Origin: Rhodospirillaceae bacterium | GTDB lineage: Bacteria > Pseudomonadota > Alphaproteobacteria > SMXQ01 | Assembly: GCA_947474495.1 (NCBI GenBank) | Contig: CANJIM010000021.1 | Span: 1-41,587 of the forward strand | Reading direction: 5' to 3' | Length of the DNA: 41,587 nucleotides | Shown: positions 1-41,439 of the stretch, piece after piece | Layout of the letters: each line of letters starts with the position of its first letter | How positions within the stretch are numbered: position 1 is the stretch's first letter | Notes under the pieces: generated by a model | What the model saw: the letters and a program-made list of their open reading frames with translations, nothing else | What the model was told of the DNA's origin: nothing | The model's database searches: none | Made by a program: the position numbers and the translations under genes

Positions 1-807
1 ACGCGCAGCCCGGGCGTCGACAAGATCGGCTTCACCGGCTCGATCCCCTCGGCTGCCAAGATCATGGCCAACGCGGCCGAGACGATCAAAGGCATTACCT
101 TGGAGCTCGGCGGCAACGATCCGGCGATTTTGCTGGAGGATGCCGATCTTGGCCCTGAGGCGATGGAGCGCATGGCCGGCGCGGTTTACCGCATGACTGG
201 CCAAGTCTGCATGGCGATCAAGCGCGTCTATGTGCCCGAAGCCATTGCCGACAAGTTCGTTGAGGCGTTCACCGGCGTCGTCAATAAAATGGTGGTCGGC
301 GACGGTCTCGCCCCCGGCGTCGCCATGGGCCCGATGCACACGGCGCGCGCCTTCGAGCGCGCCAAGGAGCTGGTCGCGGAAACGGAAAAGTCCGGCGCCA
401 AGGTGCAGCGTCTCGGCACGATGCGTGACGAGGCCAAGGACGGCGGCTATTTCCTGCCGCCGATGATCGCCACCGGCGTGAAGGAGGATTCGCGCCTGAT
501 GCGCGAGGAGCAGTTCTGCCCGCTGCTGCCGATCGTCACCTACAAGACGCTCGACGACGCCATCGCCCGCGCCAACGACACGATCTACGGCCTCGGCGGC
601 TCGGTGTGGAGCAAGAACGTCGACGCCGCGCTCGATGTCGCGCGCCGCATCGAGGCGGGTTCGGTCTTCGTCAACACGCATGGCACGCAAAGCGTCAACC
701 GCCGCGCGCCCTACGGCGGCGTCAAGCAGAGCGGCATCGGCCGCCGCGCCGGCGTCGAGGGCGTGCGCGAATATATGCAGATCCAGACGCTGACGACCTT
801 CGAGTAG
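1..807 (+). CDS. Aldehyde dehydrogenase family protein, 5' end outside the window
   Basis: This is the C-terminal two-thirds of an NAD(P)-dependent aldehyde dehydrogenase, which oxidises an aldehyde to the acid. The frame is open from base 1, so the start is missing. Visible motifs in order are FTGS (cofactor-binding strand), ELGGNDP with the general-base Glu, and GQVCMA with the catalytic Cys. The C-terminal YGGVKQSGIGRR block is the usual family ending. The substrate cannot be told from the sequence. The gene is followed after 27 bases by the stop of an aldo/keto reductase on the other strand, so the two are convergent and probably not co-transcribed. The family call is firm, the specificity unknown. 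Confidence 0.93.
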   Translation, partial: TRSPGVDKIGFTGSIPSAAKIMANAAETIKGITLELGGNDPAILLEDADLGPEAMERMAGAVYRMTGQVCMAIKRVYVPEAIADKFVEAFTGVVNKMVVGDGLAPGVAMGPMHTARAFERAKELVAETEKSGAKVQRLGTMRDEAKDGGYFLPPMIATGVKEDSRLMREEQFCPLLPIVTYKTLDDAIARANDTIYGLGGSVWSKNVDAALDVARRIEAGSVFVNTHGTQSVNRRAPYGGVKQSGIGRRAGVEGVREYMQIQTLTTFE

Positions 808-834
808 CGCGCTTCGAATGATCGGGCGGCGGCC

Positions 835-1911
835 TTACAGAACCGTGGTGGGGCCGCCGCCCTGATACTTGCCTTGGCCGGCGCCGCCGCCGGCCGCGTC
901 GAGCCGCTCGCAGGCCGTCTTGTAAGTCGCGGCGTCGAGCGGTCCCTTGGCGGCATAGGCGATGTCGGCGGCCAGATGCGCCTCGTCGGTCGTCGCCACC
1001 AGGGCGACATCGACGTTCGGATTGCTCAGCACGAAGCGGATCATGAATTCGATGCGGGGCATGCCGTCCAGCAGCTCGTCGAGCTTGGCCTTTTCCCACA
1101 GCGATTTCACTTCGCCGTCGGCGGTGCCGATCGGGCGGGTGGCCCAGCCTTTGGCCGGCGCGCCGCGCCCGGTGACGCCGCGGCAGACCACGGCTTTGCC
1201 GGCCTTGGCGAGCGCGGCGATGGCGTCTTCGTTGGTGCGCTGCAGGGCGGAGTAGGGCACCTGCACGATGCTGAAGGCCTCGACGTCGATATATTGCGCG
1301 AGATGGGGCAGGCGCTGCGAGATGCCGAGCTGGCGCACCTTGCCGTCCTTTTGCAGCTTCAGCATGGCCTCGATGACGCCGCCGTCTTCCAGCTCCTGGC
1401 GCGTCGGATTGCCATGCACTTGGACAAGATCAAGATGGTCGGTCTGCAACCGGCGCAGGCTCTGCTCGACGCCGGCGATGACGTTCTCGCCGGTGAAGGT
1501 ATGGGACTCGCCCTTTTCCTCCGGCGCCACGCCGACGGCGCAGCCGCATTTCGAGGCGAGGTAGAAGTCGCCGCGCCGCTTGGCGAGGGCCTTGCCGATC
1601 AGCATCTCGCTGAGGCCGTAATCGATCGAGGTGTCGATGTAATTGATGCCGAGATCGACCACGCGGTTGATGAAGCGGATCGCTTCGGCCTCGCCGAGAT
1701 CGCGCGCGCGGCCCGCGCCAGCCAATTCCATGGACCCGTAGCCGAGCCGGCTCGCCGTGATGCCGGTCTTGCCCATCGCCCGCGCCCCGCCTGCCAACGC
1801 CATCCCGCTCATGCCGCACAACCCCATTTGTTTGAATCGATGGCCGTCTTTATCGCGGGACGCTGCAGGTCCGGCAAGGGCCTCGATATCGTCATATCTA
1901 AAAAAATTCAT
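835..1911 (-). CDS. Aldo/keto reductase
   Basis: A soluble (beta/alpha)8 NADPH-dependent oxidoreductase that reduces carbonyl compounds. The family tetrad is visible in order: Asp and Tyr in YIDTSIDYG, Lys in ASKCG, and His in DLVQVHG. The N-terminal core begins at GKTGITASRLGYGSMEL. The start is uncertain. ATG at 1911 gives about 358 residues with a leader of roughly 45 residues before the core. ATG at 1827 or 1776 would give a more usual N-terminus, and none has a convincing ribosome-binding site. A longer open frame reaches 2013 but would run across the modA promoter and operator. The gene is divergent from modA, so the two share the 1912-1978 region. No evidence ties it to molybdenum metabolism apart from position. 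Confidence 0.85.
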   Translation of the reverse strand: MNFFRYDDIEALAGPAASRDKDGHRFKQMGLCGMSGMALAGGARAMGKTGITASRLGYGSMELAGAGRARDLGEAEAIRFINRVVDLGINYIDTSIDYGLSEMLIGKALAKRRGDFYLASKCGCAVGVAPEEKGESHTFTGENVIAGVEQSLRRLQTDHLDLVQVHGNPTRQELEDGGVIEAMLKLQKDGKVRQLGISQRLPHLAQYIDVEAFSIVQVPYSALQRTNEDAIAALAKAGKAVVCRGVTGRGAPAKGWATRPIGTADGEVKSLWEKAKLDELLDGMPRIEFMIRFVLSNPNVDVALVATTDEAHLAADIAYAAKGPLDAATYKTACERLDAAGGGAGQGKYQGGGPTTVL

Positions 1912-1934
1912 AGCGCTTGGCGACCGACGGGAGC

Positions 1935-1958
1935 CGTTGTATCCTTGTGAATATAACG
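1935..1958 (+). promoter_or_regulatory. ModE-type molybdate operator upstream of modA
   Basis: Two 8-base arms, CGTTGTAT (1935-1942) and ATATAACG (1951-1958), are inverted repeats with one mismatch and an 8-base spacer. The known ModE box of Escherichia coli has the form CGCTATAT, 8 bases, ATATAACG, so the right arm and spacing match exactly. The site ends 20 bases before the modA start codon, a position fitting repression by molybdate-loaded ModE. A ModE-type regulator gene lies at the end of the same cluster. That it binds here is inferred. Confidence 0.75.
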
Positions 1959-1978
1959 CATCTGTTGAGAGACGATCT

Positions 1979-2770
1979 ATGCAACGCCGCAGGTTTTGCC
2001 GCTCGGCTGTCATCGCCGTTGTCGGCCTCTTTGCCGTTCAGCTGGCGCCGGTCCAGCCGGCTTTGGCGCAATCGGGCGAACTGCTGGTCTTCGCCGCGGC
2101 GAGCATGAAGACCGCCCTCGACGACATCGCCAGGCAGTGGCAGTCCGAAACCGGCAAGACCGTGAAGGTCTCCTATGCCGCTTCGTCGGCGCTCGCCAAG
2201 CAGATCGAGGCGGGCGCGCCTGCCGATCTATTCATCTCGGCCGACAGCGATTGGATGACGTATGTCGCGGGCAAGAACTTGATCAAGCCGGCGACCCGCG
2301 TCGATCTGCTCGGCAACCGCATCGTTCTCGTCGCCGCGAAAGACGACAAGACCGCGCTGAAGATCGCGCCGGGCTTCAATCTCGCCGGCGTGCTCGGCAA
2401 TGATCGTTTGGCGATGGCCAACGTCGAGTCGGTGCCGGCCGGCAAATATGGCAAGGCGGCGCTCGAGAAACTCGGCGTCTGGCCGTCGGTCGCGGCCAAG
2501 GTCGCCCAGGCCGACGACGTGCGTGCCGCGCTGCTGCTCGTGTCGCGCGGCGAAGCGCCGCTCGGCATCGTCTATGCCACCGACGCCGCCGCCGATCCGA
2601 CCGTGCGCATCGTCGATAGCTTCCCGCTGACCGCACATCCGGCGATCATCTATCCGGGCGCCGTGCTGGCCGAATCGAAGAACCCCAATGCCGAGGCCTT
2701 TCTCGCCTACCTGCGCTCGGCCAAGGCCAAGCCGCTGTTCGAGAAGCAGGGCTTCAGCGTTTTAGATTAA
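1979..2770 (+). CDS. modA: Molybdate ABC transporter, periplasmic binding protein ModA
   Basis: A 263-residue periplasmic receptor that captures molybdate (or tungstate) and delivers it to ModBC. Residues 1-31 are a signal peptide with Arg residues at the N-terminus, a hydrophobic core and an ALA cleavage site before QSGELLVFAAAS. That segment opens the mature protein and is the classic ModA start, with the oxyanion-binding Ser. The motif SSALAKQIEAGAPADLFISAD follows the family. ATG at 1979 was chosen over the longer upstream frame because the signal peptide begins there, GAGA lies just before it, and the ModE-type operator sits directly upstream. It is first of modABC, with 39 bases before modB. 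Confidence 0.96.
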   Translation: MQRRRFCRSAVIAVVGLFAVQLAPVQPALAQSGELLVFAAASMKTALDDIARQWQSETGKTVKVSYAASSALAKQIEAGAPADLFISADSDWMTYVAGKNLIKPATRVDLLGNRIVLVAAKDDKTALKIAPGFNLAGVLGNDRLAMANVESVPAGKYGKAALEKLGVWPSVAAKVAQADDVRAALLLVSRGEAPLGIVYATDAAADPTVRIVDSFPLTAHPAIIYPGAVLAESKNPNAEAFLAYLRSAKAKPLFEKQGFSVLD

Positions 2771-2809
2771 ATGGGTCTCGATTGGTCAGCTGTCGGTTAG
2801 ATTGGCGTC

Positions 2810-3505
2810 ATGATGCAGTGGTTGACGCCTGAAGAATGGCAGGTCGTGGGCTTGAGCCTGCGCGTCGCCCTATGGGCGACCGTGGGCAGCCTACCTGTCG
2901 GCCTGGCCGTCGCCTGGATCCTGGCACGCAAGCGCTTCTGGGGCCATGCGCTGCTCAACGGCATCGTGCATCTGCCGCTGATCATGCCGCCGGTCGTCAC
3001 CGGCTATCTGTTGCTCATCCTGTTCGGCCGGCGTGGCGTCCTCGGCGCGGCGCTGGCGGACATCGGCATCGTCTTCGCCTTCCGCTGGACCGGCGCGGCG
3101 CTGGCCTGCGCCGTCATGGGCTTTCCGCTCATGGTGCGCGCTATTCGGCTCTCGATCGAGGCGGTGGACCGCCGCCTGGAAGCCGCCGCCGGCACGCTCG
3201 GCGCCAGCCCGCTCATGGTGTTCCTCACCGTCACCCTGCCGCTGATTCTGCCCGGCGTCGTGGCCGGCGCGATCTTGGCGTTTGCCAAGGCGATGGGTGA
3301 GTTCGGCGCCACCATCACCTTCGTGTCGAACATTCCCGGCGAGACGCGCACCTTGCCGACGGCGATCTACACCTATCTCAACGTGCCGGGCGGCGATGCC
3401 GGCGCGATCCGTCTGACGTTGATCTCGATCGCGCTGTCGCTCGCCGCATTGCTCGTCTCCGAGTGGCTGGCGCGCCGCGCCGCGCGCAATATCGGAGGCG
3501 TGTGA
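2810..3505 (+). CDS. modB: Molybdate ABC transporter permease ModB
   Basis: A 231-residue inner-membrane permease forming the molybdate channel with ModC. Hydrophobic segments alternate with short loops through the whole chain. The EAA loop that contacts the ATPase is visible as EAAAGTLGASPLMVFLTVTLP followed by a conserved Pro-Gly-rich stretch, in the usual place about two-thirds along. MPPVVTGYLLL near the second membrane segment is typical of ModB. Two adjacent ATG codons (2810 and 2813) are possible starts. Its stop codon overlaps the modC start (TGATG), which implies translational coupling. Confidence 0.95.
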   Translation: MMQWLTPEEWQVVGLSLRVALWATVGSLPVGLAVAWILARKRFWGHALLNGIVHLPLIMPPVVTGYLLLILFGRRGVLGAALADIGIVFAFRWTGAALACAVMGFPLMVRAIRLSIEAVDRRLEAAAGTLGASPLMVFLTVTLPLILPGVVAGAILAFAKAMGEFGATITFVSNIPGETRTLPTAIYTYLNVPGGDAGAIRLTLISIALSLAALLVSEWLARRAARNIGGV

Positions 3506-4575
3506 TGCTCGACGTCGCCATAAATCATCATCAGGGCGATTTCCACCTGCAGGCGAGCTTCACGGCGGTCGCCGGTCTCACGGCGCTGTTCGGCCGCTCC
3601 GGCTCGGGCAAGACGACGCTGGTCAATGTCATCGCCGGCCTGGTCAAGCCGCAGCAGGGCCGCGTCACGGTGGACGGCCAAACGCTGATCGACACGGCGG
3701 CCCATCGCTTCGTGCCGCCGCACCGCCGCCGCGTCGGCTATGTCTTTCAGGAAGGCCGGCTGTTTCCGCATCTCACGGTGCGGCAGAACCTGCGCTACGG
3801 CCGCTGGTTCACGCCCGCGCCAGAACGACGCGCCAGATTCGACGACGTCGTGGCGCTGCTCGGCATCGGCGGCTTGCTCGATCGTCATCCGGCGTCGTTG
3901 TCGGGCGGCGAGAAGCAGCGCGTCGCCATCGGCCGCGCGCTGCTCGCCAGCCCGCGCATTCTGCTGATGGACGAGCCGCTCGCCGCGCTCGACGACGCCC
4001 GCAAGGCCGAAATCCTGCCCTACATCGAGCGGCTGCGCGACGAGGCCGGCATCCCCATCGTCTATGTCAGCCATGCGGTGGCCGAAGTCGTGCGCCTCGC
4101 CACCACGGTGGTGATGATGGAGGGCGGCAGGGTCGCCGCCGCCGGACCGGCCGCCGAGGTGATGGCGCGCTTGGACGGCCTGCCGCTGACGCGCGCCGAG
4201 GCGGGCGCCTTGTTGGACGCGCAAGTGCGCGAAGCGGACGACGGTTATGGCCTGAGTTTGATCGCCACGCCCGCCGGCGATTTGCGGGTGCCCAATGTGG
4301 GCCTGCAGGTGGGCGCGCGGCTGCGCGTGCAGATCCTGGCGCGCGACGTGATGATCGCGCGCACGCCGCCAGAAGGAGTCAGCGCCCTCAACATGCTGCA
4401 GGGCCGCATCGCCGAGATCGGCGAGCCCCTGGGCGCCAGCGTCGTCTTGCGATTGGACTGCTTCGGCCTGCCGGTGCTGGCGCAGATCACGCGCCGCTCG
4501 CTGGAGACGCTGAACCTGCAAGTCGGCGAAGCCGTCACCGCCGTCATCAAGAGCGTGACCTTCGCCGGACGCTAG
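3505..4575 (+). CDS. modC: Molybdate ABC transporter ATP-binding protein ModC
   Basis: A 356-residue cytoplasmic ATPase that powers molybdate import. Residues 30-38 are the Walker A motif GRSGSGKTT. LSGGEKQRVAIGRAL is the ABC signature, LLMDEPLAALD the Walker B, and YVSHAVAEVVRLA the switch-His region. The last 65 or so residues form a Mop/TOBE domain (ALNMLQGRIAEIGE... to TAVIKSVTFAGR), the oxyanion-binding module that lets ModC sense molybdate. The ATG overlaps the modB stop by one base. The stop codon lies inside a 15-base tandem duplication shared with the end of the convergent ModE-type gene. Confidence 0.96.
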   Translation: MLDVAINHHQGDFHLQASFTAVAGLTALFGRSGSGKTTLVNVIAGLVKPQQGRVTVDGQTLIDTAAHRFVPPHRRRVGYVFQEGRLFPHLTVRQNLRYGRWFTPAPERRARFDDVVALLGIGGLLDRHPASLSGGEKQRVAIGRALLASPRILLMDEPLAALDDARKAEILPYIERLRDEAGIPIVYVSHAVAEVVRLATTVVMMEGGRVAAAGPAAEVMARLDGLPLTRAEAGALLDAQVREADDGYGLSLIATPAGDLRVPNVGLQVGARLRVQILARDVMIARTPPEGVSALNMLQGRIAEIGEPLGASVVLRLDCFGLPVLAQITRRSLETLNLQVGEAVTAVIKSVTFAGR

Positions 4576-4591
4576 GGTGCCGGACGCTAGG
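4564..4591. repeat. 15-base tandem duplication holding both modC and modE-like stop codons
   Basis: GCCGGACGCTAGG occurs at 4564-4576 and again at 4579-4591, a period of 15 bases. The first copy contains the modC stop (TAG, 4573-4575) and the second contains the stop of the convergent regulator gene (CTA on the plus strand, 4587-4589). It looks like a small replication-slippage duplication at the junction of two convergent genes. Confidence 0.8.
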
Positions 4592-5027
4592 CGTTCGGCT
4601 TGCCGAGCGCCTTGTCCAACGCCTGCAGATCGTCGGCCACCGCCTCGGTCGCCTTGCGCTCCATGGCGCGGTACAGCGCCGCCAGCTTGCGGCCGAAGTC
4701 GGTGACTGCGGCGCCGCCGCCCTTGGCGCCACCGCGCAACGTTTCCGTCACCGGCTCGGCGAAGGCCTGGTTCATGCTGTCGACCAGCAGCCAGGCTTGT
4801 CTGTACGACATGCCCATGGCGCGGCCGGCGGCGCTGATCGAGCCGTTCTCCTCGATCAATTCGAGCAGGCGCACCTTGCCCGGCCCGATCGCCTCGGCAG
4901 AACCGTCCGGAGCGGCGCGGCCGAGATCGACTCGCAGCGTCAGCGCCGGCGTCTTGGCGGGCGTGATCTCCGGCGGGGTGGCGGCCTTGCGGGTGACGCG
5001 GCCGGCGCTGCGGGCGGTGCGGGACAT
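4587..5027 (-). CDS. modE: ModE-type winged-helix transcriptional regulator, DNA-binding domain only
   Basis: A 146-residue regulator matching the N-terminal DNA-binding domain of ModE (LysR-like winged helix). About 45 Ala/Pro/Thr-rich residues come first, then the helix-turn-helix GSISAAGRAMGMSYRQAW and the dimer helix LLVDSMNQAF. The wing follows with GGAKGGGAAVTDFGRKL, a run highly typical of ModE. Full-length ModE is about 260 residues and carries a C-terminal pair of Mop domains that bind molybdate. That part is absent, so molybdate sensing by this protein is not evident. ATG at 5027 was chosen because upstream sequence in the same frame looks non-coding and overlaps the next gene. It likely acts on the box before modA. 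Confidence 0.85.
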   Translation of the reverse strand: MSRTARSAGRVTRKAATPPEITPAKTPALTLRVDLGRAAPDGSAEAIGPGKVRLLELIEENGSISAAGRAMGMSYRQAWLLVDSMNQAFAEPVTETLRGGAKGGGAAVTDFGRKLAALYRAMERKATEAVADDLQALDKALGKPNA

Positions 5028-5174
5028 GGCCCCACTATAACCACAACGGAAACAATGGCCTAGAGGCGGGGCGTCAATCGCCTGTGGGAAACTCTTGCAG
5101 CCGAGGGGCGGCGGCCTAAAATGGCGGGTAACAAGCAGCTGCACCCAACCAGCGTTTTTCCGGAGGTTTGTCCC

Positions 5175-5693
5175 ATGACCGCGCCCAGCGATACCGCCGT
5201 GCTTCCGCCGACCACCGAACTGCGGAGCTACAAGAAATCCGACGTCGCCACGCCGGTCGAGAAGAAGCTCAGCTTCTACAAGCTCAAGGCGCAGATGCTG
5301 GAAGAGGGCCGCACCAACACGCGCCTCGGCCGCTGCGACAATATGTGGGCAGTGCTCAAGGTCTACGCCTCGGGCGGCGAGAACGGCCTGCACACCCATC
5401 CCAGCGAAGACCATACCTTCCTCGTGCTGCAGGGCCGCGCCCGCTACCACGATGAAGACGGCAACACCCAGGAAGTCGGCAAGTTCGAAGGCGTGATGAT
5501 CCCCGCCGGCGCCTACTACTGGTTCGAATCGATCGCCGAGGAAGAGCTGGTGCTGTTCCGCGTCGGCGCCGGCAGCCATCCGGGCGCCAACCCGTCGCAC
5601 CGCCTCAACATCCGCGGCGAAGACATGCCGGGCGACTCGCCCGAGAACAAGCAGGGCAATCTCGTCTTCAAGAAGGACAAGTTTTTCGGCTAG
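5175..5693 (+). CDS. Cupin domain-containing protein
   Basis: A 172-residue protein with a single cupin (small beta barrel) fold. The first cupin motif is visible in GGENGLHTHPSEDHTFLVLQG, with two His and a Glu/Asp that usually hold a metal ion. The second motif appears as GVMIPAGAYYWFES but lacks its usual His. Substrate and reaction are unknown; similar proteins are annotated only as cupins. GGAGG ten bases before ATG 5175 fixes the start, and a slightly longer upstream frame is rejected. A strong hairpin terminator follows the stop. The gene is divergent from the ModE-type regulator, with 147 bases between them. Confidence 0.85.
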   Translation: MTAPSDTAVLPPTTELRSYKKSDVATPVEKKLSFYKLKAQMLEEGRTNTRLGRCDNMWAVLKVYASGGENGLHTHPSEDHTFLVLQGRARYHDEDGNTQEVGKFEGVMIPAGAYYWFESIAEEELVLFRVGAGSHPGANPSHRLNIRGEDMPGDSPENKQGNLVFKKDKFFG

Positions 5694-5713
5694 ACGAGAC
5701 GCATCGCGAATCG

Positions 5714-5748
5714 AAAGGGCGGGACCATCGGTCCCGCCCTTTTCGTTT
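5714..5748. terminator. Strong hairpin terminator between two convergent cupin genes
   Basis: AAAGGGCGGGACC (5714-5726) pairs perfectly with GGTCCCGCCCTTT (5730-5742), giving a 13-bp stem with a three-base loop. A T-rich tract follows on the plus strand, and the A-rich left side supplies a T tract for the minus strand. It can therefore serve both convergent genes. Confidence 0.9.
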
Positions 5749-5758
5749 GTGCGGCGCG

Positions 5759-6316
5759 TTAGTCCTTCTCTGGACGTGGCGGTCGATCGGTCACTGTCTT
5801 CTTCGCCGGATTGAACGTATGGCGCCAGACGCTGTCCATGTCGTCGGAGACGACGCGGATCAGGATTGAGGGCTCGGCGGGATGCGCCGTTTCGTGGATG
5901 GCGCCGACGCCGAACAATTCGGCCTCGCCGGCCTTCACGCGATATTCGCGCGTCGCCGCCAGGTCGGCATAGCCCGGCTGCGAACCGTCGTCGCGCCGCT
6001 GGTAGTCGATCATGTCGGTGTGGCCGGTGAGGTTGCCATACACGATCCAGCAGGGGCCGTGGTCGTGCGGCTTGCTGACGCCCGCCGCATCATAGACATG
6101 CACGAACACATGCATGCCGGTGGACGGCTCATGATGCAGCGTGCGGCGGCCGGGGGCGGGGCCGAGAAAGGCGTGGATCAGCTTGGGGTGGCGCAGCAGC
6201 TGCAGCAGATGGCGGCGCACCGCGCTCTGGCCGTCCGGGCCGGCATCCGCCAATAAGCTGGCGCGGCAATCGTCGAAGAAGGTCTCTAGGCTGTAGCTAT
6301 GGGCCACGATGGACAT
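5759..6316 (-). CDS. Cysteine-dioxygenase-like cupin protein
   Basis: A 185-residue cupin whose core HVFVHVYDAAGVSKPHDHGPCWIVYGNLTGHTDMI places His residues as in thiol dioxygenases. A later His (VGAIHETAH) would complete a three-His iron site. Cysteine dioxygenases are about 200 residues, so the length fits. I infer a mononuclear-iron thiol dioxygenase or relative; the substrate is not determinable. ATG 6316 has GGAG seven bases before it and gives the usual N-terminus; ATG 6361 is an alternative adding 15 polar residues. It is divergent from a TusA-type sulfur carrier gene across about 60 bases, which makes a role in sulfur-compound metabolism more plausible. Confidence 0.7.
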   Translation of the reverse strand: MSIVAHSYSLETFFDDCRASLLADAGPDGQSAVRRHLLQLLRHPKLIHAFLGPAPGRRTLHHEPSTGMHVFVHVYDAAGVSKPHDHGPCWIVYGNLTGHTDMIDYQRRDDGSQPGYADLAATREYRVKAGEAELFGVGAIHETAHPAEPSILIRVVSDDMDSVWRHTFNPAKKTVTDRPPRPEKD

Positions 6317-6378
6317 AGCAGGCTCCGATTCGGAAGGGGCGTTCTCATTTGACGGCCCCATGATATATCCTGGCCGCC

Positions 6379-6684
6379 ATGACAGGCCAGAGCCCAGACC
6401 CTAGCGCGAAAGCCAGTTCCGGCGCCGGAACGCCAGCTGACACGCCTGCCGCCACGCCCGATCAGCGCCTCGATCTCAGCGGCTTGAAATGCCCGCTGCC
6501 GGTGCTGCGCGCCAACAAGGCGCTGCGCGGCCTGGCCACGGGCGCGGTGATCGAGGTGACGGCGGACGATCCCGCCAGCGCCAAGGATTTCCCGGTTTAT
6601 TGCGACACGGCGGGCCATAAATTGCTGGCGGCGGAGTCCGCGGAGAATGGCCGCTTCGTCTTTCGCATCCGCAAAGGCGGCTGA
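6379..6684 (+). CDS. TusA-family sulfurtransferase
   Basis: A 101-residue small sulfur carrier. The defining CPxP motif appears in LDLSGLKCPLPVLRANKAL; its Cys carries the persulfide passed on in thiolation or sulfur-oxidation reactions. The rest of the fold follows with GAVIEVTADDPASAKDFPVYC. The first 28 or so residues are a Ser/Ala/Thr/Pro-rich extension not found in the 80-residue Escherichia coli TusA and probably disordered. The family covers 2-thiouridine tRNA synthesis as well as general sulfur relay, and which applies here is not shown. The start is the first ATG after the divergent cupin gene's promoter region. Confidence 0.88.
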   Translation: MTGQSPDPSAKASSGAGTPADTPAATPDQRLDLSGLKCPLPVLRANKALRGLATGAVIEVTADDPASAKDFPVYCDTAGHKLLAAESAENGRFVFRIRKGG

Positions 6685-6810
6685 TCGCTCCGCCGCGAAA
6701 AAGGCCGCTCGGCGAACCACTGTCCGATTTCGTACAATAGGCGTGATCGACGCGCGCGCCGCCACGGGGCTGCTGCAACCAGCGGAGCGCAGAAGGATAG
6801 GGGCGGTATT

Positions 6811-7743
6811 ATGACCACGGCGCTCTTCACCCATCCGGCCTGTCTGGCGCATGACCCCGGCCCCGGCCATCCCGAATCGCCGGCGCGCTTGCAAGCGGTG
6901 CTCGCCGCGTTGGATGCGCCGGAATTCGCCGGCCTCGCGCGATACGAGGCGCCGCTCGCGACCGAAGACCAAATCCTCCGCGTCCATCCCGTTGACCTCA
7001 TCCATCATCTGCTCGGCGCCGTGCCGCAGGAAGGTTTCGCCAGGATCGACGGCGACACCATCCTGTCGCCCGGTTCGGCCGAGGCCGCTTTGCGCGCCGC
7101 CGGGGCGCTCTGCGCGGCGGTCGATGCGGTGATGGCGGGGGAGGTGCAAAACGCTTTCTGCGCCGTGCGCCCGCCCGGCCATCACGCCGAGCCCGAGACG
7201 GCGATGGGCTTCTGCCTGTTCAACAATGTCGCCATCGGCGCGCTGCACGCGCGGGCCGCGCACGGCCTCACGCGAATCGCCGTGGTCGACTTCGACGTGC
7301 ATCACGGCAACGGTACCCAAGCCGCCTTCGAGCAGGACCCCGATCTGTTCTTCGCCTCGTCCCACCAGTCGCCGCTCTATCCCGGCAGCGGCAGCATCGT
7401 CGAGCGTGGCGTCGGCAACATCTTCAATGCGCCGCTGCCGCCGGGATCGGGCAGCGCGGAATTCCGCACCGCCTGGCGCGAGCGCCTGCTGCCGGCGCTG
7501 CGCGACTTCAAACCGGAGTTCATTTTGATTTCCGCCGGATTCGACGCCCACGCCGACGACCCGCTGGCGAATCTAAACCTGACGGAAGACGACTATGCCT
7601 GGATCACGCGCGAGATTATGGCGATTGCCGAGGAGTGTTGTGCAGGTCGCGTCGTCTCAACGCTGGAAGGCGGCTATGATTTGGAGGCACTGGCGCGGAG
7701 CGTGAGGGCGCATATATCGCAATTAGGCATAGCTAATTTCTAA
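6811..7743 (+). CDS. Histone deacetylase / acetylpolyamine amidohydrolase family protein
   Basis: A 310-residue zinc amidohydrolase that removes acetyl groups from amines such as acetylpolyamines or acetyl-lysine. The active site is complete: paired His in RPPGHHAEPET (124-125), zinc ligands in VVDFDVHHGNGT (Asp 162, His 164), Asp in ISAGFDAHADDPL, and the transition-state Tyr in LEGGYDLE. In many alphaproteobacteria a gene of this family precedes xseB-ispA-dxs. Here the order is kept but a low-GC insert begins at its very end. The last dozen or so residues and the stop lie in AT-rich DNA and overlap the end of the inserted gene by 11 bases, so the C-terminus may have been altered by the insertion. 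Confidence 0.92.
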   Translation: MTTALFTHPACLAHDPGPGHPESPARLQAVLAALDAPEFAGLARYEAPLATEDQILRVHPVDLIHHLLGAVPQEGFARIDGDTILSPGSAEAALRAAGALCAAVDAVMAGEVQNAFCAVRPPGHHAEPETAMGFCLFNNVAIGALHARAAHGLTRIAVVDFDVHHGNGTQAAFEQDPDLFFASSHQSPLYPGSGSIVERGVGNIFNAPLPPGSGSAEFRTAWRERLLPALRDFKPEFILISAGFDAHADDPLANLNLTEDDYAWITREIMAIAEECCAGRVVSTLEGGYDLEALARSVRAHISQLGIANF

Positions 7744-8750
7744 CGCTTCTGTAGGGAATTGATGAAGTTCTAATCGCAATCACTTCGTTCTGAAGGTACG
7801 CGCGCCGGCAATCTGCTGCAAATTTTTCGGCTATTTTGGGATCATTCGCAGGACCACACACGATTTCTTTTATTGAAGAAGCCGCTACTTTCTTCCAATT
7901 AAACTCTTGGTCTCTAACAAGAGCATAAGGTCGAGTGCGAAATAGTAATTCAGGCAACTGTGCGGTGATTGGGTAGCTTTGTAAAAAACGATACTCTTGT
8001 TCATTTACATAAGCTTCGTGTTTAAAGCATAACGACAAAAGTATGCAGGATGCAGCTAAGCGAGCAGAGAGGGCGGCTAAAAAATTTGCTATTTCTTGTG
8101 GGGGCAAATCCTTTCCGCGAGGAGTCTCTATAAAAGAGATCGTTTCTTTGGTGAGATTCTCGAGCAGTTCACAAATTTTTTTGTCGTCATATTTTACTGG
8201 AAAAGTTGAATGGTTAGCGTCTTCTGCTCGCGCTGTTATGAAGGCATTTTCTAAAACCTTCGCATCAAATCCTATGGCGTAACCTTTTCCATCGTCTCCG
8301 TAAGCGCGCCATTGACCTAAATCTTTGTCAGTCCGGCTAAAGCAACAAACAAACCATTGCGCTGCTGCCGTTAATTTACCACTCATCGCCTCGACGAAGC
8401 TGTCTGAAAAAAACTTGAATTCAGGTCTCTTGTTCAACTTGGGCAATCAGAATTTTGAACGCGTGCTTCATTCCATGATCAAGTTCCGATGGATCGTTCA
8501 AACTAAATAAATCGGTAAACCATAACTTACCTGTTTCAGGTATGCCCTTAAGGCCTTTGTCATCTGTATAATGATAAATTACGCTGGGCTTTGGAGCGTT
8601 TAAAAGTTCACCAGTGAAATTATCGCATATGGCACTTGATTGTGCGCTGTGACGTTCAAGTGCCTCGATCAACGCTTTTGTTGTATCCACAGATGCCATT
8701 TGCTTATTGCCCCCAGAAATAATATTCACCAATACCTAAATAAACTCCGC
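7715..8750. other. Low-GC insert between the deacetylase-like gene and xseB
   Basis: Base composition changes abruptly to AT-rich at about 7715 and returns to the GC-rich background at about 8745. The stretch contains only the broken DUF2971 gene. No integrase, transposase or long terminal repeat is visible. The only shared flank is a six-base CGCAAT at 7718-7723 and 8752-8757, too short to prove a target duplication. Recent transfer is inferred from composition and from the interrupted gene order. Confidence 0.7.
7733..8699 (-). pseudogene. DUF2971-family protein, split by a frameshift
   Basis: Two adjoining minus-strand frames together make one DUF2971 protein of about 320 residues. The 5' part carries VIYHYTDDKGLKGIPETGKLWFTD and LNDPSELDHG, the usual N-terminal block. 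The 3' part carries WFVCCFSRTDKDLGQWRAYGDDGKGYAIGFD, HEAYVNEQEYRFL and a final IKEIVCGP block. The first frame stops at 8421. The second has no ATG at the junction, only TTG at 8446, and lies one base further along. Removing one base from the GGG at 8441-8443 (CCC on the coding strand) would join them. It could be a real mutation or a sequencing error. The family's function is unknown. The start is taken at ATG 8699; TTG 8732 is an alternative. Confidence 0.8.
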
Positions 8751-8770
8751 GCGCAATCAAGGATTTGACC

Positions 8771-9037
8771 ATGGCCAAGACCGCGTCCGCCGACACTGAA
8801 ATCTCCCCCGACATCGCCGCGCTGTCCTTTGAGGATGCGCTGGCTGAGTTGGAGAAGATCGTCGGCGATTTGGAGCGCGGCAAGGTCAAGCTCGACGATG
8901 CCATCGCCGCCTACACGCGCGGCGCGCAGCTCAAGCGCCATTGCGAGATGAAGCTCGCCGCCGCCAAGGCCAAGGTCGAGAAGATCGTCGTGCGGCCGGA
9001 CGGCAGCGTTTCGGCCGAAGAGACCGAACTCAACTAA
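8771..9037 (+). CDS. xseB: Exodeoxyribonuclease VII small subunit XseB
   Basis: An 88-residue small subunit of exonuclease VII, which with XseA degrades single-stranded DNA to oligonucleotides. The pattern LSFEDALAELEKIVGDLERGKVKLDDAIAAYTRGAQLKRHCEMKL is the family's helical hairpin and fills most of the protein. ATG 8771 has AAGGA at proper distance; the TTG six bases earlier is less likely. It sits 111 bases before ispA, as in many bacteria where xseB and ispA are neighbours. The gene lies immediately after the low-GC insert, which may have replaced its original promoter or separated it from the upstream gene. Confidence 0.94.
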   Translation: MAKTASADTEISPDIAALSFEDALAELEKIVGDLERGKVKLDDAIAAYTRGAQLKRHCEMKLAAAKAKVEKIVVRPDGSVSAEETELN

Positions 9038-9148
9038 CTTCCCAGTTCCCACCGCGCGTCCCGGGACATGACGCGGCGGCTCCGCGCGGCTATGCTGCGG
9101 CCCTGCGTGGCAACTGCGCCGCGCCTGATGAATGTTCAGGCCCTTGCG

Positions 9149-10105
9149 ATGACCAACACCTCGCCCGGCAACGCGCCGGATATTGCCGGCGCTTTGGCGT
9201 CCGCCGCCGTCGCGGTCGAGGGCGTGCTCGACGCCGTGCTGCCGCGCGCCGCCAGCCGGCCCGAGCATGCGCTGCCCGAGGACGTGCTGTTCGATGCCAT
9301 GCGCTATGCCGTGATGAACGGCGGCAAGCGCTTCCGCCCGGCCTTGTCGCTCGCCTGCGCCCGGCTGTTCGACCTGCCCGATACGTCGGTGCTGCGCGCC
9401 GCCGCCGCCGTCGAACTGGTCCATTGCTATTCGCTGGTGCATGACGACCTGCCGGCGATGGACGACGACGACATGCGGCGCGGCCAGCCGTCCTGCCATG
9501 CCAAGTTCGGCGAGGCGACCGCGATCCTGGCGGGCGACGCGCTGATGACGCTGGCCTTCGAGGTGCTGGCCGATCCCGCCACCCATCCGGATGCGGCGCG
9601 GCGCACCGAGCTGATCCTCGCCCTGGCGCGCGCCGCCGGGCCCCAGGGCATGGTGGCCGGGCAGATGATCGACCTCGCCGCCGAGGGCAAGACCGCCATG
9701 GGAGCAGGGGCGCCTCGTTCGCTCGATGCCGACGGTATTGCCCGCATGGAAGAATTGAAGACCGCCGCCCTGATTTCGGCGGCCTGCGAGGCGCCGGCCA
9801 TCCTCGCCGGAGCCTCCGCCGAGGCGCGCGGCAAGCTCGCTGCCTATGCCCGCGCGCTCGGCCTGGCCTATCAGGTGACCGACGATCTGCTCGACGCCGA
9901 GGGCGGCTCGGCCGAGATCGGCAAGACCGCCGGCAAGGACGCCGCCGCCGGCAAGGCGACCTTCGTCGCCACCCTGGGGCTGGCGGGAGCAAGGGCCGAG
10001 GCCGAGCGTTTACTGCGGGACGCCGGTCAAAGCCTTGATTTCTTCGGGGAAAAGGCCGAATTTCTGCGCCACTTGACGCGGTTCGTTCTCGAACGGCGTA
10101 AGTGA
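9149..10105 (+). CDS. ispA: Farnesyl/geranyl diphosphate synthase (polyprenyl synthetase)
   Basis: A 318-residue prenyltransferase that condenses isopentenyl diphosphate with allylic diphosphates, normally to farnesyl diphosphate. The first Asp-rich motif is in LVHDDLPAMDDDDMRRG and the second in YQVTDDLLDAEG; the GKTAGKDAAAGKATF block between helices is typical of IspA. NGGKRFRP near the N-terminus binds the homoallylic diphosphate. Several upstream start codons exist (9068, 9128). ATG 9149 gives the usual length but no start has a clear ribosome-binding site. It lies between xseB and dxs and supplies the next steps of the same isoprenoid pathway. Confidence 0.93.
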   Translation: MTNTSPGNAPDIAGALASAAVAVEGVLDAVLPRAASRPEHALPEDVLFDAMRYAVMNGGKRFRPALSLACARLFDLPDTSVLRAAAAVELVHCYSLVHDDLPAMDDDDMRRGQPSCHAKFGEATAILAGDALMTLAFEVLADPATHPDAARRTELILALARAAGPQGMVAGQMIDLAAEGKTAMGAGAPRSLDADGIARMEELKTAALISAACEAPAILAGASAEARGKLAAYARALGLAYQVTDDLLDAEGGSAEIGKTAGKDAAAGKATFVATLGLAGARAEAERLLRDAGQSLDFFGEKAEFLRHLTRFVLERRK

Positions 10106-12255: not shown

Positions 12256-13652
12256 ATGTCCGCCGCCCTGTCCTCCGTATCTACCGTCTCACGCGGCGCC
12301 CTGTGGCGCGCCGAAGTGAAGGCCATGCTCGCGCTCGGCGTGCCGCTGGCGCTCAGCCAATTGGCGCAGATCGCGATTCAGACCACCGACGTGGTGCTGC
12401 TCGGCTGGCTCGGCCCCGAGTCGCTGGCCGCGGCCGGCTTGGCGACCAACATCTGGGTCATCATGTTCCTGTTCGGGCTCGGCGTGGTCAGCGCCGTTTC
12501 GCCCATCGTGTCGCAGATCGTCGGCCGGCCGGAAAAGCGCGGCAAGGTGCGCGCCATCCGCCGCATCGTGCGCCAGGGCTTCTGGGCCGCTGGTTTGCTC
12601 TCCGTGCCCTTCATGCTGGTGTGCTGGCACATCCAGGCGATCCTGCTGCTGTTCGGCCAGGACCCTTTGCTGGCCGCCGCCGCCGAGCCGTTCCTGCGCG
12701 CGCTGATGTGGGCGACCCTGCCGGCCCTGTGGTTCGTCGTGCTGCGCTGCTTCGTCTCGGCCTTCGAGCGCACCCGCGCCGTGCTGATCGTCACCGTCTG
12801 CGGTATCCTGTTCAACGCGCTGATCAATTACGGCCTGATCTTCGGGCACTTTGGGTTGCCTCGCCTCGAACTGCTCGGCGCCGGCATCGGTTCGGCGATC
12901 ACCCACAGCAGCATGACCGTCATCATGTTGGCCTATGTGCTGCGCGACAAACGCTTCCGCCGCTACTACATCCTCGGCCGCTTGTGGCGCGCCGACTGGT
13001 CGCGCCTGGGCGAAATTTTCCGCATCGGCCTGCCGATCGGCAGCATGTGGGTGCTCGAGGTCGGCGTCTTCACCGCCGCTTTGCTGCTGATGGGCTTGAT
13101 CGGCACCACCGCCATCGCCGCCCATCAGATCGCCCTGCAATGCGCCGCGATTACTTTTATGGTGCCGCTCGGCATGGCGATGGCCGCCACCGTGCGCGTC
13201 GGCGTCGCCATCGGCGGCGACGACATGGCGGGCGCCCGCCGCGCCGGCTTCACGGCGCAAGCGCTCGGCGTCGGCTTCATGGGCCTCAGCGCCTTGACCT
13301 TCCTGTTCGCCGGGCCGCATCTCGTCGGCCTGTTTCTCGATGCCGAACGGCCCGATACGTTGCCGGTCTCGCTGCTCGCCGCGCAATTGCTGGTCGTCGC
13401 CGGCATCTTCCAGATGTTCGACGGCGCCCAGAGCGTCGCCGCCGGGGCGCTGCGCGGCTTGAAAGACACGCGCTGGCCGCTCGCCATCGCGCTGGTCGCC
13501 TATTGGCTGATCGCCTTTCCGCTCGGCGTGCTGTTCGGTTTTCCGTTCAAGCTGGGCGCGGTCGGCATTTGGATCGGCCTCGTCGCCGGCCTCGCCATCG
13601 CCGCCGTGCTGCTGACCCTGCGCTTCCATTGGCTAACCAAGCGGCGGGCGTC

Positions 13653-13656
<4 letters not shown>
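12256..13656 (+). CDS. MATE family multidrug/Na+ or H+ antiporter
   Basis: A 466-residue inner-membrane exporter of the multidrug and toxic compound extrusion family. About twelve hydrophobic segments run through the sequence in two similar halves. The family opening is seen in LALGVPLALSQLAQIAIQTTDVVLLGWLG and the second-half counterpart in IFRIGLPIGSMWVLEVGVFTAALLLMGLIGTTAIAAHQIAL. Such proteins expel cationic drugs or metabolites using an ion gradient; the substrate here is unknown. ATG 12256 was chosen with GAGA upstream. The stop overlaps the tlyA start (ATGA), so the two are translationally coupled, although their functions are not obviously linked. Confidence 0.92.
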
Positions 13657-14414
<758 letters not shown>

Positions 14415-17795: not shown

Positions 17796-18566
17796 ATGAC
17801 GCTTTGGCTGCGTTTCGCTCGGGAAGACGGCCGCACGGGCTTCGGCATTCTCGAGGGCGACAGTATCTCCGTTCACGAGGGCGATCTGTTCGGCGCCAAC
17901 GTGCCGGCGGGCGAGAGCCTCCCCTTGGCGGGCGTGACCTTGCTGACGCCCTGCGAACCGCAGAAGATGGTCTGCTTGTGGAACAACTCGCGCGCCGTGG
18001 CGGCGAAGAACAATCTGACGGAGCCGGCGGAGCCGCTTTACTTTCTCAAGGCGCCGAGCGCCTATCTCGCCAGCGGCCATGTCATTCCGCGCCCGCTCTC
18101 TTATGAAGGCCGGGTGATCTATGAGGGCGAGCTCGGCGTCGTCATCGGCAAGCGTTGCAGCGGCGTCGACGAAGCAGCGGCGGCCGATCACATCTTCGGT
18201 TTCACCTGCGTCAACGACGTTACTGCGCTTGAACTGCTGTTCAAGGATCCGTCCTTTCCGCAATGGACGCGGGCCAAGAACTTCGACGGGTTCGGCGCCT
18301 TCGGTCCGGTCGTCGCCACGGGCCTCGATCCGGCAGCGCTCACGGTCAAGGCCTTGCTCGACGGTCGCGAACGGCAGAGTCAGTCGATGGACGACATGTT
18401 CTTCTCGCCGGCCAAGCTGGTCAGTCTGATCTCGCGCGATATGACGCTGCTGCCCGGCGATGTCATCGCCTGCGGCACCACGGTGGGCGCCTTGCCGATG
18501 AAGCCCGGCGCCAAGATCGAGATTGTCGTCGAGGGCGTGGGCACGCTGTCGAACGTCATGGGCTGA
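17796..18566 (+). CDS. Fumarylacetoacetate hydrolase (FAH) family protein
   Basis: A 256-residue enzyme with the FAH fold, which breaks C-C bonds or decarboxylates oxo acids using Mg2+ or Mn2+. Metal ligands are visible as the two Glu in IYEGELGVVIG and Asp in CVNDVTALELL. Other markers are FLKAPSAYLASG, QWTRAKNFDGFGAFGPV and the late LLPGDVIACGTTVG. The length matches bacterial single-domain members such as hydratases and decarboxylases of meta-cleavage routes. It is the last gene of this short plus-strand run and is convergent with aroC. A long palindrome lies between the two stops. Confidence 0.9.
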   Translation: MTLWLRFAREDGRTGFGILEGDSISVHEGDLFGANVPAGESLPLAGVTLLTPCEPQKMVCLWNNSRAVAAKNNLTEPAEPLYFLKAPSAYLASGHVIPRPLSYEGRVIYEGELGVVIGKRCSGVDEAAAADHIFGFTCVNDVTALELLFKDPSFPQWTRAKNFDGFGAFGPVVATGLDPAALTVKALLDGRERQSQSMDDMFFSPAKLVSLISRDMTLLPGDVIACGTTVGALPMKPGAKIEIVVEGVGTLSNVMG

Positions 18567-18591
18567 AGAGCCGCAGTTTCGACAGTCCCTG

Positions 18592-18622
18592 CGTCATGGC
18601 CGCGACGACTGCGGGCATGACG
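18592..18622. repeat. REP-like palindrome between convergent genes
   Basis: CGTCATGGCCGC (18592-18603) and GCGGGCATGACG (18611-18622) are inverted repeats of 12 bases with one mismatch around a seven-base loop. The GTCATGcCCGC type of arm resembles dispersed palindromes of other alphaproteobacterial genomes. It lies between the stops of the FAH-family gene and aroC and could also act as a transcription barrier. Only one copy is present in this window. Confidence 0.6.
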
Positions 18623-18645
18623 GCTGTTTGGTGCTAGGGGCGGCG

Positions 18646-19755
18646 CTACGCGCCGATCTTGCCGCCGGCGTGATCGCCGACTTGGGCGCGCTGGCGCAGA
18701 TAATGGTCGGCCAACACGCAGGCCAGCATGGCTTCGCCGACCGGCACGGCGCGGATGCCGACGCAGGGGTCATGGCGGCCCTTGGTGACGACTTCGGTGT
18801 CGTTGCCGTGGATGTCGACCGTGCGGCGCGGCATCAGGATCGAGCTGGTCGGCTTGACCGCGAAACGCACGACGACGTCCTGGCCGGTCGAGATACCGCC
18901 GAGGATGCCGCCTGCCTTGTTCGACAGAAAATCGACTTTGCCGTCCTTCATGCGCATTTCGTCGGCATTCTCGTCGCCCATCAGCGAAGCGGCGGCCATG
19001 CCTGCACCGATCTCGACGCCCTTCACGGCGTTGATGCTCATCATGGCGGCGGCGAGGTCGGCGTCGAGCTTGCCGTAGATCGGCGCGCCGAGGCCGGCCG
19101 GCACGCCGGATGCGACCAGTTCGATGATGGCGCCGACCGAATTGCCCGATTTGCGCACGCCGTCGAGATAGCTTTCCCAGGTCTGCGCCGCTTGGCGGTC
19201 GGGGCACCAGAAGGGATTGTCCTGCGTCGCGTCCCACTCCCAACGCGCGCGGTCGATCACTTGCGTGCCCATTTGCACCATGGCGCCGCGGATGACGAAA
19301 CCGTCGCCGAACGCCTGCTTGAGGATTTGCCGCGCTACGCCGCCGGCGGCGACGCGCATGGCGGTCTCGCGCGCCGAGGAGCGCCCGCCGCCGCGATAGT
19401 CGCGGATGCCGTATTTCTGATGGTAGGTCAGGTCGGCGTGGCCGGGGCGGAACTTGTCCTTGATGTCGCCGTAGTCCTTCGAGCGCTGATCCTCGTTCTG
19501 GATCAGCAGGCCGATGGAGGTGCCGGTGGTTTTGCCCTCGAAGACGCCCGACAGGATCTGCACGGTGTCGCTTTCCTGGCGCTGGGTGACGAAGCGCGAC
19601 GTGCCGGGCTTGCGCGCTTCCATCCAGACCTGGATGTCGTCTTCTTTCAGCGCGATGCCCGGCGGGCAGCCGTCGACCACGCAGCCGATCGCCGGCCCGT
19701 GGCTTTCGCCCCAGGTTGTGACGCGGAACAGATGGCCGAAGGTGTTGTGCGACAT
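18646..19755 (-). CDS. aroC: Chorismate synthase
   Basis: A 369-residue enzyme that converts 5-enolpyruvylshikimate 3-phosphate to chorismate using reduced FMN, the last common step to aromatic amino acids. All three family signatures are present: [19 protein letters not shown] near residue 16, the [20 protein letters not shown] block, and [17 protein letters not shown] near the C-terminus. The start codon at 19755 has GGCGGA upstream. It follows fabI by 15 bases on the same strand, so the two are probably one operon. Long open frames on the opposite strand here are shadows. Confidence 0.97.
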
Positions 19756-26300: not shown

Positions 26301-27032
26301 TTACTGCGGCAAAGCAGCCAGAGTGGTGTCCGTAGGGGCGGGAAGGCCGGCGATTTCGCGAATCAGTTTGCTGCGCACGGCGTTGGCGAAATCTTCGAAG
26401 CCTTCGGCCGGAATTGAGAAGGCGCCGGGGCCGCCGATCACATCTCGCGCGTAAAATTCCTCAAGGTAGGGTTCGCCGAGGATCGGCAAGCCGTTGATGA
26501 CGATACCCTGCGCGACGACATAATCGCGGGCCGGTGCGGCCGGCATGCCGTTTCGCGTGCGACCGTCGCCCGAGAGATCGATGACGCGGCGCGCGGCCTC
26601 GAAACCGTTGTTATTAAATAGGCCGGCAGCGTGATAGAGCGCTTCGCCGACGGCGGTGCCGCCGCCGAAGAAATAGGCGCGCGGCAGCGTCAGCAGTTTT
26701 TCTGCGAAGGCATTGGCGCTCGCTTCGCTGTCGATCAGCGTCCAGTCGATCACGACTTGCTGCATGTTGGCGGCAGCCCATTCGACGAAGACGACGGCGA
26801 TGCGTTGCATACCGCCGCTGCGGATAGCATTGATCACGCGCTTGTCCTGGAATGCGGTGGCGTAGCCCCGCCGTTGCAGGATGAATTCCTGATCGTCGAC
26901 GCTGCGTGAGACGTCGGTGCTGAGCACCAACGCGAGATCAACGGGTTTGTCTGCGGCTTGGGCCGGCAAGGCCAGCCCTACGCCGAAGAAGGCCAACAGC
27001 GCGACGAGAGCAGCCATGCGGCGCAGCGGCAT
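26301..27032 (-). CDS. DUF1194 secreted von Willebrand-type protein
   Basis: A 243-residue protein of the DUF1194 family. Residues 1-26 are a signal peptide ending ALPAQAADK. The mature part begins VDLALVLSTDVSRSVDDQEF, a variant metal-ion-dependent adhesion site with DxSxS, and continues with VIDLSGDGRTRNG and AYFFGGGTAVGEAL. This is a von Willebrand A-like fold, usually a protein-protein binding module in the periplasm or outside. The biological role is unknown. It follows a PadR-like gene by three bases, and its start may be translated from ribosomes finishing that gene. Confidence 0.85.
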   Translation of the reverse strand: MPLRRMAALVALLAFFGVGLALPAQAADKPVDLALVLSTDVSRSVDDQEFILQRRGYATAFQDKRVINAIRSGGMQRIAVVFVEWAAANMQQVVIDWTLIDSEASANAFAEKLLTLPRAYFFGGGTAVGEALYHAAGLFNNNGFEAARRVIDLSGDGRTRNGMPAAPARDYVVAQGIVINGLPILGEPYLEEFYARDVIGGPGAFSIPAEGFEDFANAVRSKLIREIAGLPAPTDTTLAALPQ

Positions 27033-41378: not shown

Positions 41379-41439
41379 GTCCGTCGCCGCTCTAGAGCTT
41401 CGGGGTCGCGGCGGGCCGTCCGGTCAGCGGATACGGCCC

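What the first reader, a model, noticed from the sequence alone, without database searches (positions are those of the whole stretch)
7715..8750. Low-GC cargo inserted into the deacetylase-xseB-ispA-dxs block
A conserved gene order is interrupted by about 1 kb of AT-rich DNA that carries a single DUF2971 gene reading against the neighbours. The insert begins inside or at the end of the deacetylase-like gene, leaving its last residues in foreign-looking sequence. No recombinase or clear repeat is present, so the means of arrival is unexplained. DUF2971 proteins are of unknown function and are often found as scattered accessory genes, so a defence-type cargo is possible but unproved.
Basis: partly seen in the sequence, partly recalled or inferred. 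Interest (0 to 1): 0.5.

Follow-up and report, generated by a model that had tools for sequence, protein, structure and literature searches.

The report
Foreign gene at a deacetylase-xseB junction
An uncultured alphaproteobacterium carries one frameshifted, foreign-looking gene, predicted to have the fold of ADP-ribose-transferring enzymes and related to a listed phage-defence candidate, in a gene junction where its sister species carries a different foreign-looking gene.

Summary
About 1 kb at window 7744-8740 has 42% GC against 65-68% around it, and its one sizeable gene is DUF2971 on the minus strand. It is not ancestral: six of the ten deacetylase-bearing genomes of the order have only a 67-115 bp gap here. 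The one other held species of the genus has a different AT-rich orphan gene at the same junction, and two further genomes have 2 kb of other genes at near-native composition. Across 83 loci this junction is occupied (gap above 600 bp) in 10; xseB|ispA is opened in none of 67 measured. So this is a permissive boundary filled more than once.

Corrections: the DUF2971 gene is split by a frameshift, so it is a pseudogene or a draft error; the deacetylase keeps its normal length; CGCAAT is not a target duplication.

New lead: AlphaFold models of the window protein (read through) and of an intact viral-contig homologue both align best with the ADP-ribosyltransferase DarT, but only at best Z 8.4 and 6.7. 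PADLOC's phage-defence candidate PDC-S31 profiles match in part. Most likely: horizontally acquired, defence-type ADP-ribosyltransferase cargo, apparently damaged. How it arrived is unproved.

The parts
6811..7743 (+). Deacetylase (PF00850), left flank; native length, last codons divergent
   Evidence: Pfam E 5.7e-95; 87% aa identity to G001; lengths and tails
7744..8740 (.). AT-rich foreign insert; left border within 7715-7743, right border within about 8733-8740
   Evidence: GC 0.421 vs 0.65-0.68 and top tetranucleotide distance; blastn against G001 stops at 7715 and resumes at 8741
7733..8446 (-). DUF2971 gene, downstream part (second frame), holds the conserved W/Y, K and E-x-E residues
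   Evidence: PF11185 E 6.6e-12; PDC-S31 E 5e-9; phrog_1762 E 3.2e-21
8421..8732 (-). DUF2971 gene, upstream part (first frame; likely start ATG at 8699), holds the YHYT and ND..E residues
   Evidence: phrog_1762 E 1.8e-4; matches the same homologous ORFs as the downstream part
8741..8770 (+). Native xseB leader with the TAAACT box; the TTGCYC box found 17 nt upstream in relatives is absent at that spacing
   Evidence: Shared with G001 without mismatch; TTGCYC-17-TANACT in 8 of 10 order genomes, not in G000 or G010
8771..9037 (+). xseB (exonuclease VII small subunit), right flank
   Evidence: PF02609 E 3.8e-18
9068..10105 (+). ispA-type prenyl synthase ORF, part of the conserved block
   Evidence: ORF; next to xseB in relatives; gene name as in the finding, not scanned

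Best explanation
A single accessory gene of foreign origin was inserted, with loss of the short intergenic spacer, at the boundary between two transcription units: deacetylase | xseB-ispA-dxs. This boundary tolerates insertions, and different lineages have filled it with different genes. The cargo is a DUF2971 gene. DUF2971 proteins are predicted here to have an ADP-ribosyltransferase fold, with an HY pair on the first strand of the core and an E-x-E-x-R motif by a late strand. The most likely activity is NAD+-dependent ADP-ribosylation of a nucleic acid or other cell target, as stand-alone anti-phage (abortive-infection type) or phage accessory cargo. In this genome the gene is split by a frameshift that separates the two halves of the predicted site, so it is probably inactive now, unless the shift is a draft error. 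Shown: insertion, composition, absence from this place in relatives, different cargo in the sister species, the frameshift in this assembly, conserved residues, fold similarity of two models. Inferred: catalysis, target, defence role, transcription-unit boundary, and entry by homology-assisted or illegitimate recombination.
For: Composition. Occupancy in the order is 4 of 10 genomes, with three different contents. hdac|xseB gap above 600 bp in 10 of 83 loci, xseB|ispA above 200 bp in 0 of 67; only one pair of these loci is alike above 93%. DUF2971 is sporadic: 9 of 385 class genomes by protein query and 49 of 299 phylum genomes by Pfam, own genome included in both. It occurs in viral contigs: 11 of 11 hits of a motif pattern carry a DUF2971-like ORF (judged by alignment, not Pfam-scanned). 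PDC-S31 and PHROG matches. Family-invariant residues are kept in the window copy. Window model (pLDDT 79): best aligned to DarT, Z 8.4 (4.4 A, 151 residues) and 8.2 (3.7 A, 141 residues). Viral-contig homologue (pLDDT 84): DarT is Foldseek's top hit, and 18 of 22 VIA rows are ART folds, some by recall.
Against: No Foldseek PDB match at E <= 0.001 for either model. For the window model Foldseek ranks DinG and N-methyltransferases among its first hits (E 0.12 and up); the first ART fold, KptA, is 34th (E 1.8). In the VIA list for the window model, by my count 27 of 50 rows are ART folds, but ribosome recycling factor reaches Z 7.2 at rank 8. Best Z of 8.4 and 6.7 lies about where the tool says models without a clear match often fall (7 to 8). 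The profile comparison with KptA is weak (probability 12%, P 0.0024). No antitoxin and no defence gene beside it. The PADLOC match covers 120-170 of 273 positions. The sister's cargo sits on a 3,071-bp contig of a draft genome. No direct trace of the recombination event.
Confidence: 0.6

Rival explanations
1. One ancestral multi-gene AT-rich island entered before the two species split; each species then lost a different part, leaving DUF2971 in one and the orphan gene in the other. No repeated insertion is needed within the genus.
For: Both held species of the genus have AT-rich cargo at the same junction, although such islands are sparse: 9 in about 796 kb of readable sampled stretches.
Against: No clear similarity between the two cargoes: 108 and 10 of 200 base shuffles reach the best local score on the two strands. 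The deletions would have had to stop at native sequence on both sides. The right borders differ: G001 keeps TTGCTC-17-TAAACT, the window does not.
Confidence: 0.2
2. Replacement by homologous recombination: the junction is a small replacement island whose contents are exchanged among strains by crossovers in the conserved flanking genes. This is compatible with the best explanation and concerns only the means of arrival.
For: Different contents between conserved core flanks; codons 26-74 of xseB differ at a single synonymous site between the two species, and only 16 of 1580 windows of 180 nt are at least as alike as its best window.
Against: Two other regions are as conserved: about 5183-5683 (which lies next to the GIY-YIG insertion of G001) and about 23433. 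The left flank next to the junction shows no such signal. No strain-level data.
Confidence: 0.3
3. The frameshift is a draft error and the DUF2971 gene is intact and active.
For: Only one disruption; both halves keep the family-invariant residues. The source is a draft of 127 contigs. In Halomonas elongata a frameshift in a DUF2971 gene was repaired on resequencing (PMC5552945, passage seen).
Against: The overlap of the two frames has no base run longer than 3. Reads were not available.
Confidence: 0.35
4. A transposon, integron cassette or other recombinase-borne element delivered the gene.
For: Single-gene size, foreign composition.
Against: No terminal inverted or flanking direct repeats at the borders. 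CGCAAT is not a duplication. The DUF2971 stop lies inside the deacetylase ORF, leaving no room for an attC site. No tRNA in the window. No ORF of recombinase size besides DUF2971 in the insert.
Confidence: 0.07

Closest known systems
DUF2971 (PF11185) / PADLOC candidate PDC-S31 / phrog_1762
   Same: The window gene matches all three; family-invariant residues kept.
   Different: Split by a frameshift; the PADLOC match covers only part of the profile.
DarT (DarTG toxin-antitoxin, DNA ADP-ribosyltransferase)
   Same: Best structural alignment of two DUF2971 models. DarTG is reported to protect against phages (PMC11543638, start of abstract and passages).
   Different: No DarG or NADAR partner beside it; 8-17% identity in the structural alignments; the DarT residues named in print were not mapped onto the models.
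Tpt1/KptA RNA 2'-phosphotransferase
   Same: Its C-terminal part aligns with the models; YHYT lines up with FHGT in the profile comparison.
   Different: KptA chains have a further N-terminal part (alignments begin near residue 84-104); the profile match is weak.
Core defence hotspots and replacement flexible genomic islands
   Same: Fixed core flanks with differing cargo, some defence-type (PMC10250203 and PMC4033161, abstracts seen).
   Different: Here one to three genes instead of many kilobases (medians of 6 and 26 kb for the two P. aeruginosa hotspots), and only 4 of 10 genomes occupied.

Membership tests
DUF2971 (PF11185) | Score above the Pfam gathering cut-off over the full profile | tested here: met
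   47.1 bits against a cut-off of 22, profile positions 1-89 of 89. That the gene is split is told elsewhere; it is not a feature of the family.
PADLOC PDC-S31 | Match to PDC-S31 profiles by PADLOC's rules | tested here: inconclusive
   Five PDC-S31 models match, best E 5e-9 over 120-170 of 273 positions; PADLOC's own thresholds were not applied
PADLOC PDC-S31 | Anti-phage activity | not testable with these tools
   No held paper names PDC-S31
ADP-ribosyltransferase superfamily | ART fold | tested here: inconclusive
   DarT is the best VIA match of two models, Z 8.4 and 6.7; no Foldseek hit at E <= 0.001
ADP-ribosyltransferase superfamily | Catalytic residues of the [H-Y-E] or [R-S-E] type | tested here: inconclusive
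   H43, E233 and E235 invariant and Y133 nearly so, but not superposed on a solved active site
ADP-ribosyltransferase superfamily | NAD+-dependent transfer | not testable with these tools
   Needs an assay
DarTG | Adjacent DarG or NADAR antitoxin | tested here: not met
   The neighbours are hdac and xseB
Transposon insertion | Terminal inverted repeats and target duplication | tested here: not met
   None at the borders; the right-hand CGCAAT lies in native leader
Integron cassette | attC site at the gene's 3' end | tested here: not met
   The gene's stop lies within the deacetylase ORF; no suitable inverted repeat there
Replacement island / cargo hotspot | Different cargo between the same core flanks in relatives | tested here: met
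   Three contents in 4 of 10 order genomes
Replacement island / cargo hotspot | Recombination tracts in the flanks | tested here: inconclusive
   One conserved stretch in xseB, equalled in two other regions

The most novel reading that the evidence does not exclude
DUF2971 is an unrecognised family of stand-alone, antitoxin-less ADP-ribosyltransferases of the DarT/Tpt1 type, spread by phages and by single-gene chromosomal insertion, that defend against phages by modifying nucleic acid; and the hdac|xseB junction of this order is a small site where such cargo is exchanged.
Probability: 0.3. Interest if true: 0.65.

Novelty: new member of a known kind. Interest (0 to 1): 0.42.

Why it matters
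The locus is a small, clear example of cargo turnover: two species of one genus carry unrelated single foreign genes at one boundary while the aligned flanks stay collinear. More useful is the lead on function. DUF2971 was found in 49 of 299 sampled genomes of the phylum and in viral contigs. In the library searched, one paper mentions the name, only in an annotation table, and none mentions PF11185. A predicted ADP-ribosyltransferase fold with named invariant residues makes the family directly testable.

Tried and rejected
Target duplication by CGCAAT: rejected. Transposon, integron cassette, tRNA-associated element: no border repeats, no attC room, no tRNA. Ancestral gene: rejected by relatives. 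Truncated deacetylase: not supported. Two other insertions in G001 as the same phenomenon: neither is AT-rich, a GIY-YIG ORF and an HslJ/META-like ORF. The AT-rich window end (40700-41380) aligns with G001 and holds a Flp pilin. Relatives of the sister's orphan cargo: only its own genome among 385 class genomes, none in 398 phylum genomes, plasmids, phages or (peptide search) viral contigs; no Pfam, NCBIfam or PADLOC match, E 0.11 in PHROGs; such absence shows little. Relatives of the window DUF2971 in named records: one plasmid (27% identity), one phage record (32%), none by peptide search of viral contigs with it or with the L119 homologue. Solved structures by sequence: best E 0.22, unconvincing. 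Foldseek against viral models: none at E <= 0.001, best E 0.0035 to an unnamed protein, not followed. Promoter and terminator scans at chance level. Flank divergence as a sign of exchange: inconclusive. The promoter pattern was tried on 18 loci; a looser form matched 11 and not G000, G010, G011, G017, G019, G035, G038. For one search I gave 102 loci (83 had both genes, 19 no xseB); left out were repeats of one place (L001, L003, L032), loci replaced by longer stretches (L011, L014, L026, L031), and deacetylase paralogues or loci without xseB (L021, L024, L025, L027-L030, L113-L117). L254 was dropped from the alignments as a near copy of L252; L248 and L252 are also absent from A4.

Full report
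Observation. The window carries deacetylase (PF00850) - xseB (PF02609) - ispA-like - dxs-like genes in one direction (the last two names follow the finding). Between the first two lies about 1 kb at 42.1% GC, against 66.8% and 68.0% on the two sides, with the largest tetranucleotide distance of 163 one-kilobase windows. Its one sizeable gene is DUF2971 on the minus strand (PF11185, E 6.6e-12).

The gene is broken in this assembly. It lies in two overlapping frames, 8421-8732 and 7733-8446. Both halves match the same PHROG family, phrog_1762, in the right order, and nine homologous ORFs are matched by both halves at E <= 0.01 (alignments of eight homologues). Read through, it keeps the invariant residues of an alignment with ten viral-contig homologues, among them H43, Y44, N68, D69, E72, W130, Y133, K226, E233, E235 and R237. 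So it was intact until recently, or the shift is a draft error. A frameshift in another DUF2971 gene was repaired on resequencing (PMC5552945, passage seen).

Is it ancestral? Eleven genomes of the order are held and ten have the deacetylase. In six of the ten the gap to xseB is 67-115 bp. In the window it is 1031 bp. In G001, the only other held species of the genus, it is 878 bp with a different gene: a 267-aa orphan on the plus strand in AT-rich DNA of 41.3% GC, without clear similarity to the window's insert and without relatives found elsewhere. In G009 and G010 it is 1974 and 1980 bp at 61-64% GC, next to deacetylase genes of 67-70%, with TetR and flavodoxin-like genes in both and an anthrone-oxygenase-like gene scanned in G009. 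Their congeners G003 and G007 have 94 bp. Over 83 loci with both genes, hdac|xseB exceeds 600 bp in 10, and xseB|ispA exceeds 200 bp in 0 of 67 measured. Only one pair of these loci, G002 and G006, is alike above 93%. The junction is thus a permissive boundary, filled more than once.

Borders. Blastn against G001 stops at 7715 and resumes at 8741. On the left, the deacetylase is 310 aa in both species and 308 in G002; only the codons after AHI/AHV differ. On the right, 8 of 10 order genomes carry TTGCYC-17-TANACT upstream of xseB, G001 among them. The window keeps TAAACT (8741-8746) but has no TTGCYC at that spacing, so the insertion probably replaced the upstream half of the xseB promoter. 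G010 lacks a match too. That these boxes are a promoter is inferred from conservation. CGCAAT is not a target duplication, and no border repeats were found.

Background rate. Stretches under 48% GC in 400-bp windows formed 6 islands in 380 kb of G000 and 3 in 416 kb of G001 (two stretches that read N left out). Over about 35 kb of the window aligned with G001 (within 763-9791 and 14511-41439), three gaps of more than 500 bp separate the blocks, and only that at hdac|xseB is AT-rich. Two AT-rich insertions at one junction are unlikely to be chance, but one older island with different losses is not excluded.

What the gene does. DUF2971 is sporadic: 9 of 385 class genomes by protein query and 49 of 299 phylum genomes by Pfam, own genome included. 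All 11 viral-contig hits of a motif pattern carry such an ORF. PADLOC's phage-defence candidate PDC-S31 profiles match in part (best E 5e-9). The AlphaFold model of the read-through window protein (pLDDT 79, pTM 0.77) is best aligned by VIA with DarT (Z 8.4, 4.4 A, 151 residues; Z 8.2, 3.7 A, 141 residues), then more DarT entries and Tpt1. By my count 27 of the 50 rows are ART folds, but ribosome recycling factor reaches Z 7.2, and plain Foldseek put DinG and N-methyltransferases among its first hits. I therefore folded a second, intact family member (L249, pLDDT 84, pTM 0.83) without the window sequence in its alignment. Here Foldseek's top hit was DarT (E 0.11, probability 0.60), and the first 18 of 22 VIA rows were ART folds (DarT, Tpt1, CteC, the Rhs toxins TreX/TreTu, PARP1; Z 6.7 down to 3.1). 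That Tpt1, the Rhs toxins and the unlabelled C. violaceum effector entries are ART folds is recalled. A profile comparison with KptA was weak but lined up YHYT with FHGT (probability 12%). I judge an ART fold likely (about 0.75) and a phage-defence role plausible (about 0.45).

Mechanism. Inferred: the intact protein would use NAD+ to ADP-ribosylate a target and stop phage growth, as reported for DarTG (PMC11543638, start of abstract and passages) and CmdTAC (PMC11618068, start of abstract and passages). The frameshift falls between the YHYT half and the E-x-E half of the predicted site, so neither half alone should work. Entry was probably by recombination with help from the conserved flanks or by illegitimate joining. 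No recombinase gene lies in the insert, and the flank test was inconclusive.

Known or new. Fixed core flanks with changing, partly defence-type cargo are known in other bacteria (PMC10250203, PMC4033161, abstracts seen). In the library searched, one paper names DUF2971, in an annotation table; none names PF11185 or PDC-S31; a survey of viral NAD+/ADP-ribose systems, PMC9503650, does not contain the name (term search only). The library lacks most subscription papers, so this does not prove that the fold is unreported.

Noticed in passing
L173 (G001:C143) 5005-5614; window about 5743-5763: The sister species has a GIY-YIG ORF (PF01541, E 4.3e-9) with CCCTCGGG...CCCGAGGG palindromic repeats around it where the window has about 20 bp; possibly a repeat-associated mobile unit.
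   Followed up: partly
L202 (G001:C11) 4057-4866; window about 18565-18653: The sister species has an extra HslJ/META-like ORF at 62% GC in a gap that is about 89 bp in the window.
   Followed up: partly
window 41193-41378: Flp/Fap pilin gene (PF04964) in an AT-richer stretch at the contig end; the region aligns with G001, so it is native.
   Followed up: yes
window 8700-8746: The TTGCYC box found 17 nt upstream of TANACT at xseB in 8 of 10 order genomes is missing at that spacing, so the insert may have altered expression of xseB and the genes after it.
   Followed up: partly
L035, L074, L075, L081, L101, L105: The hdac|xseB junction also holds 0.9-2 kb of other DNA near native composition in other lineages, e.g. 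a ribosomal protein S4-like ORF in L081 (name by eye, not scanned).
   Followed up: partly
window 26345-26973 against L202 about 12599-13995: One window stretch aligns to two tandem stretches of the sister genome, probably tandem paralogues.
   Followed up: no
PMC5552945: In Halomonas elongata a DUF2971 gene is listed under 'repair of known frameshift', a precedent for a frameshift in this family being a sequencing error.
   Followed up: no
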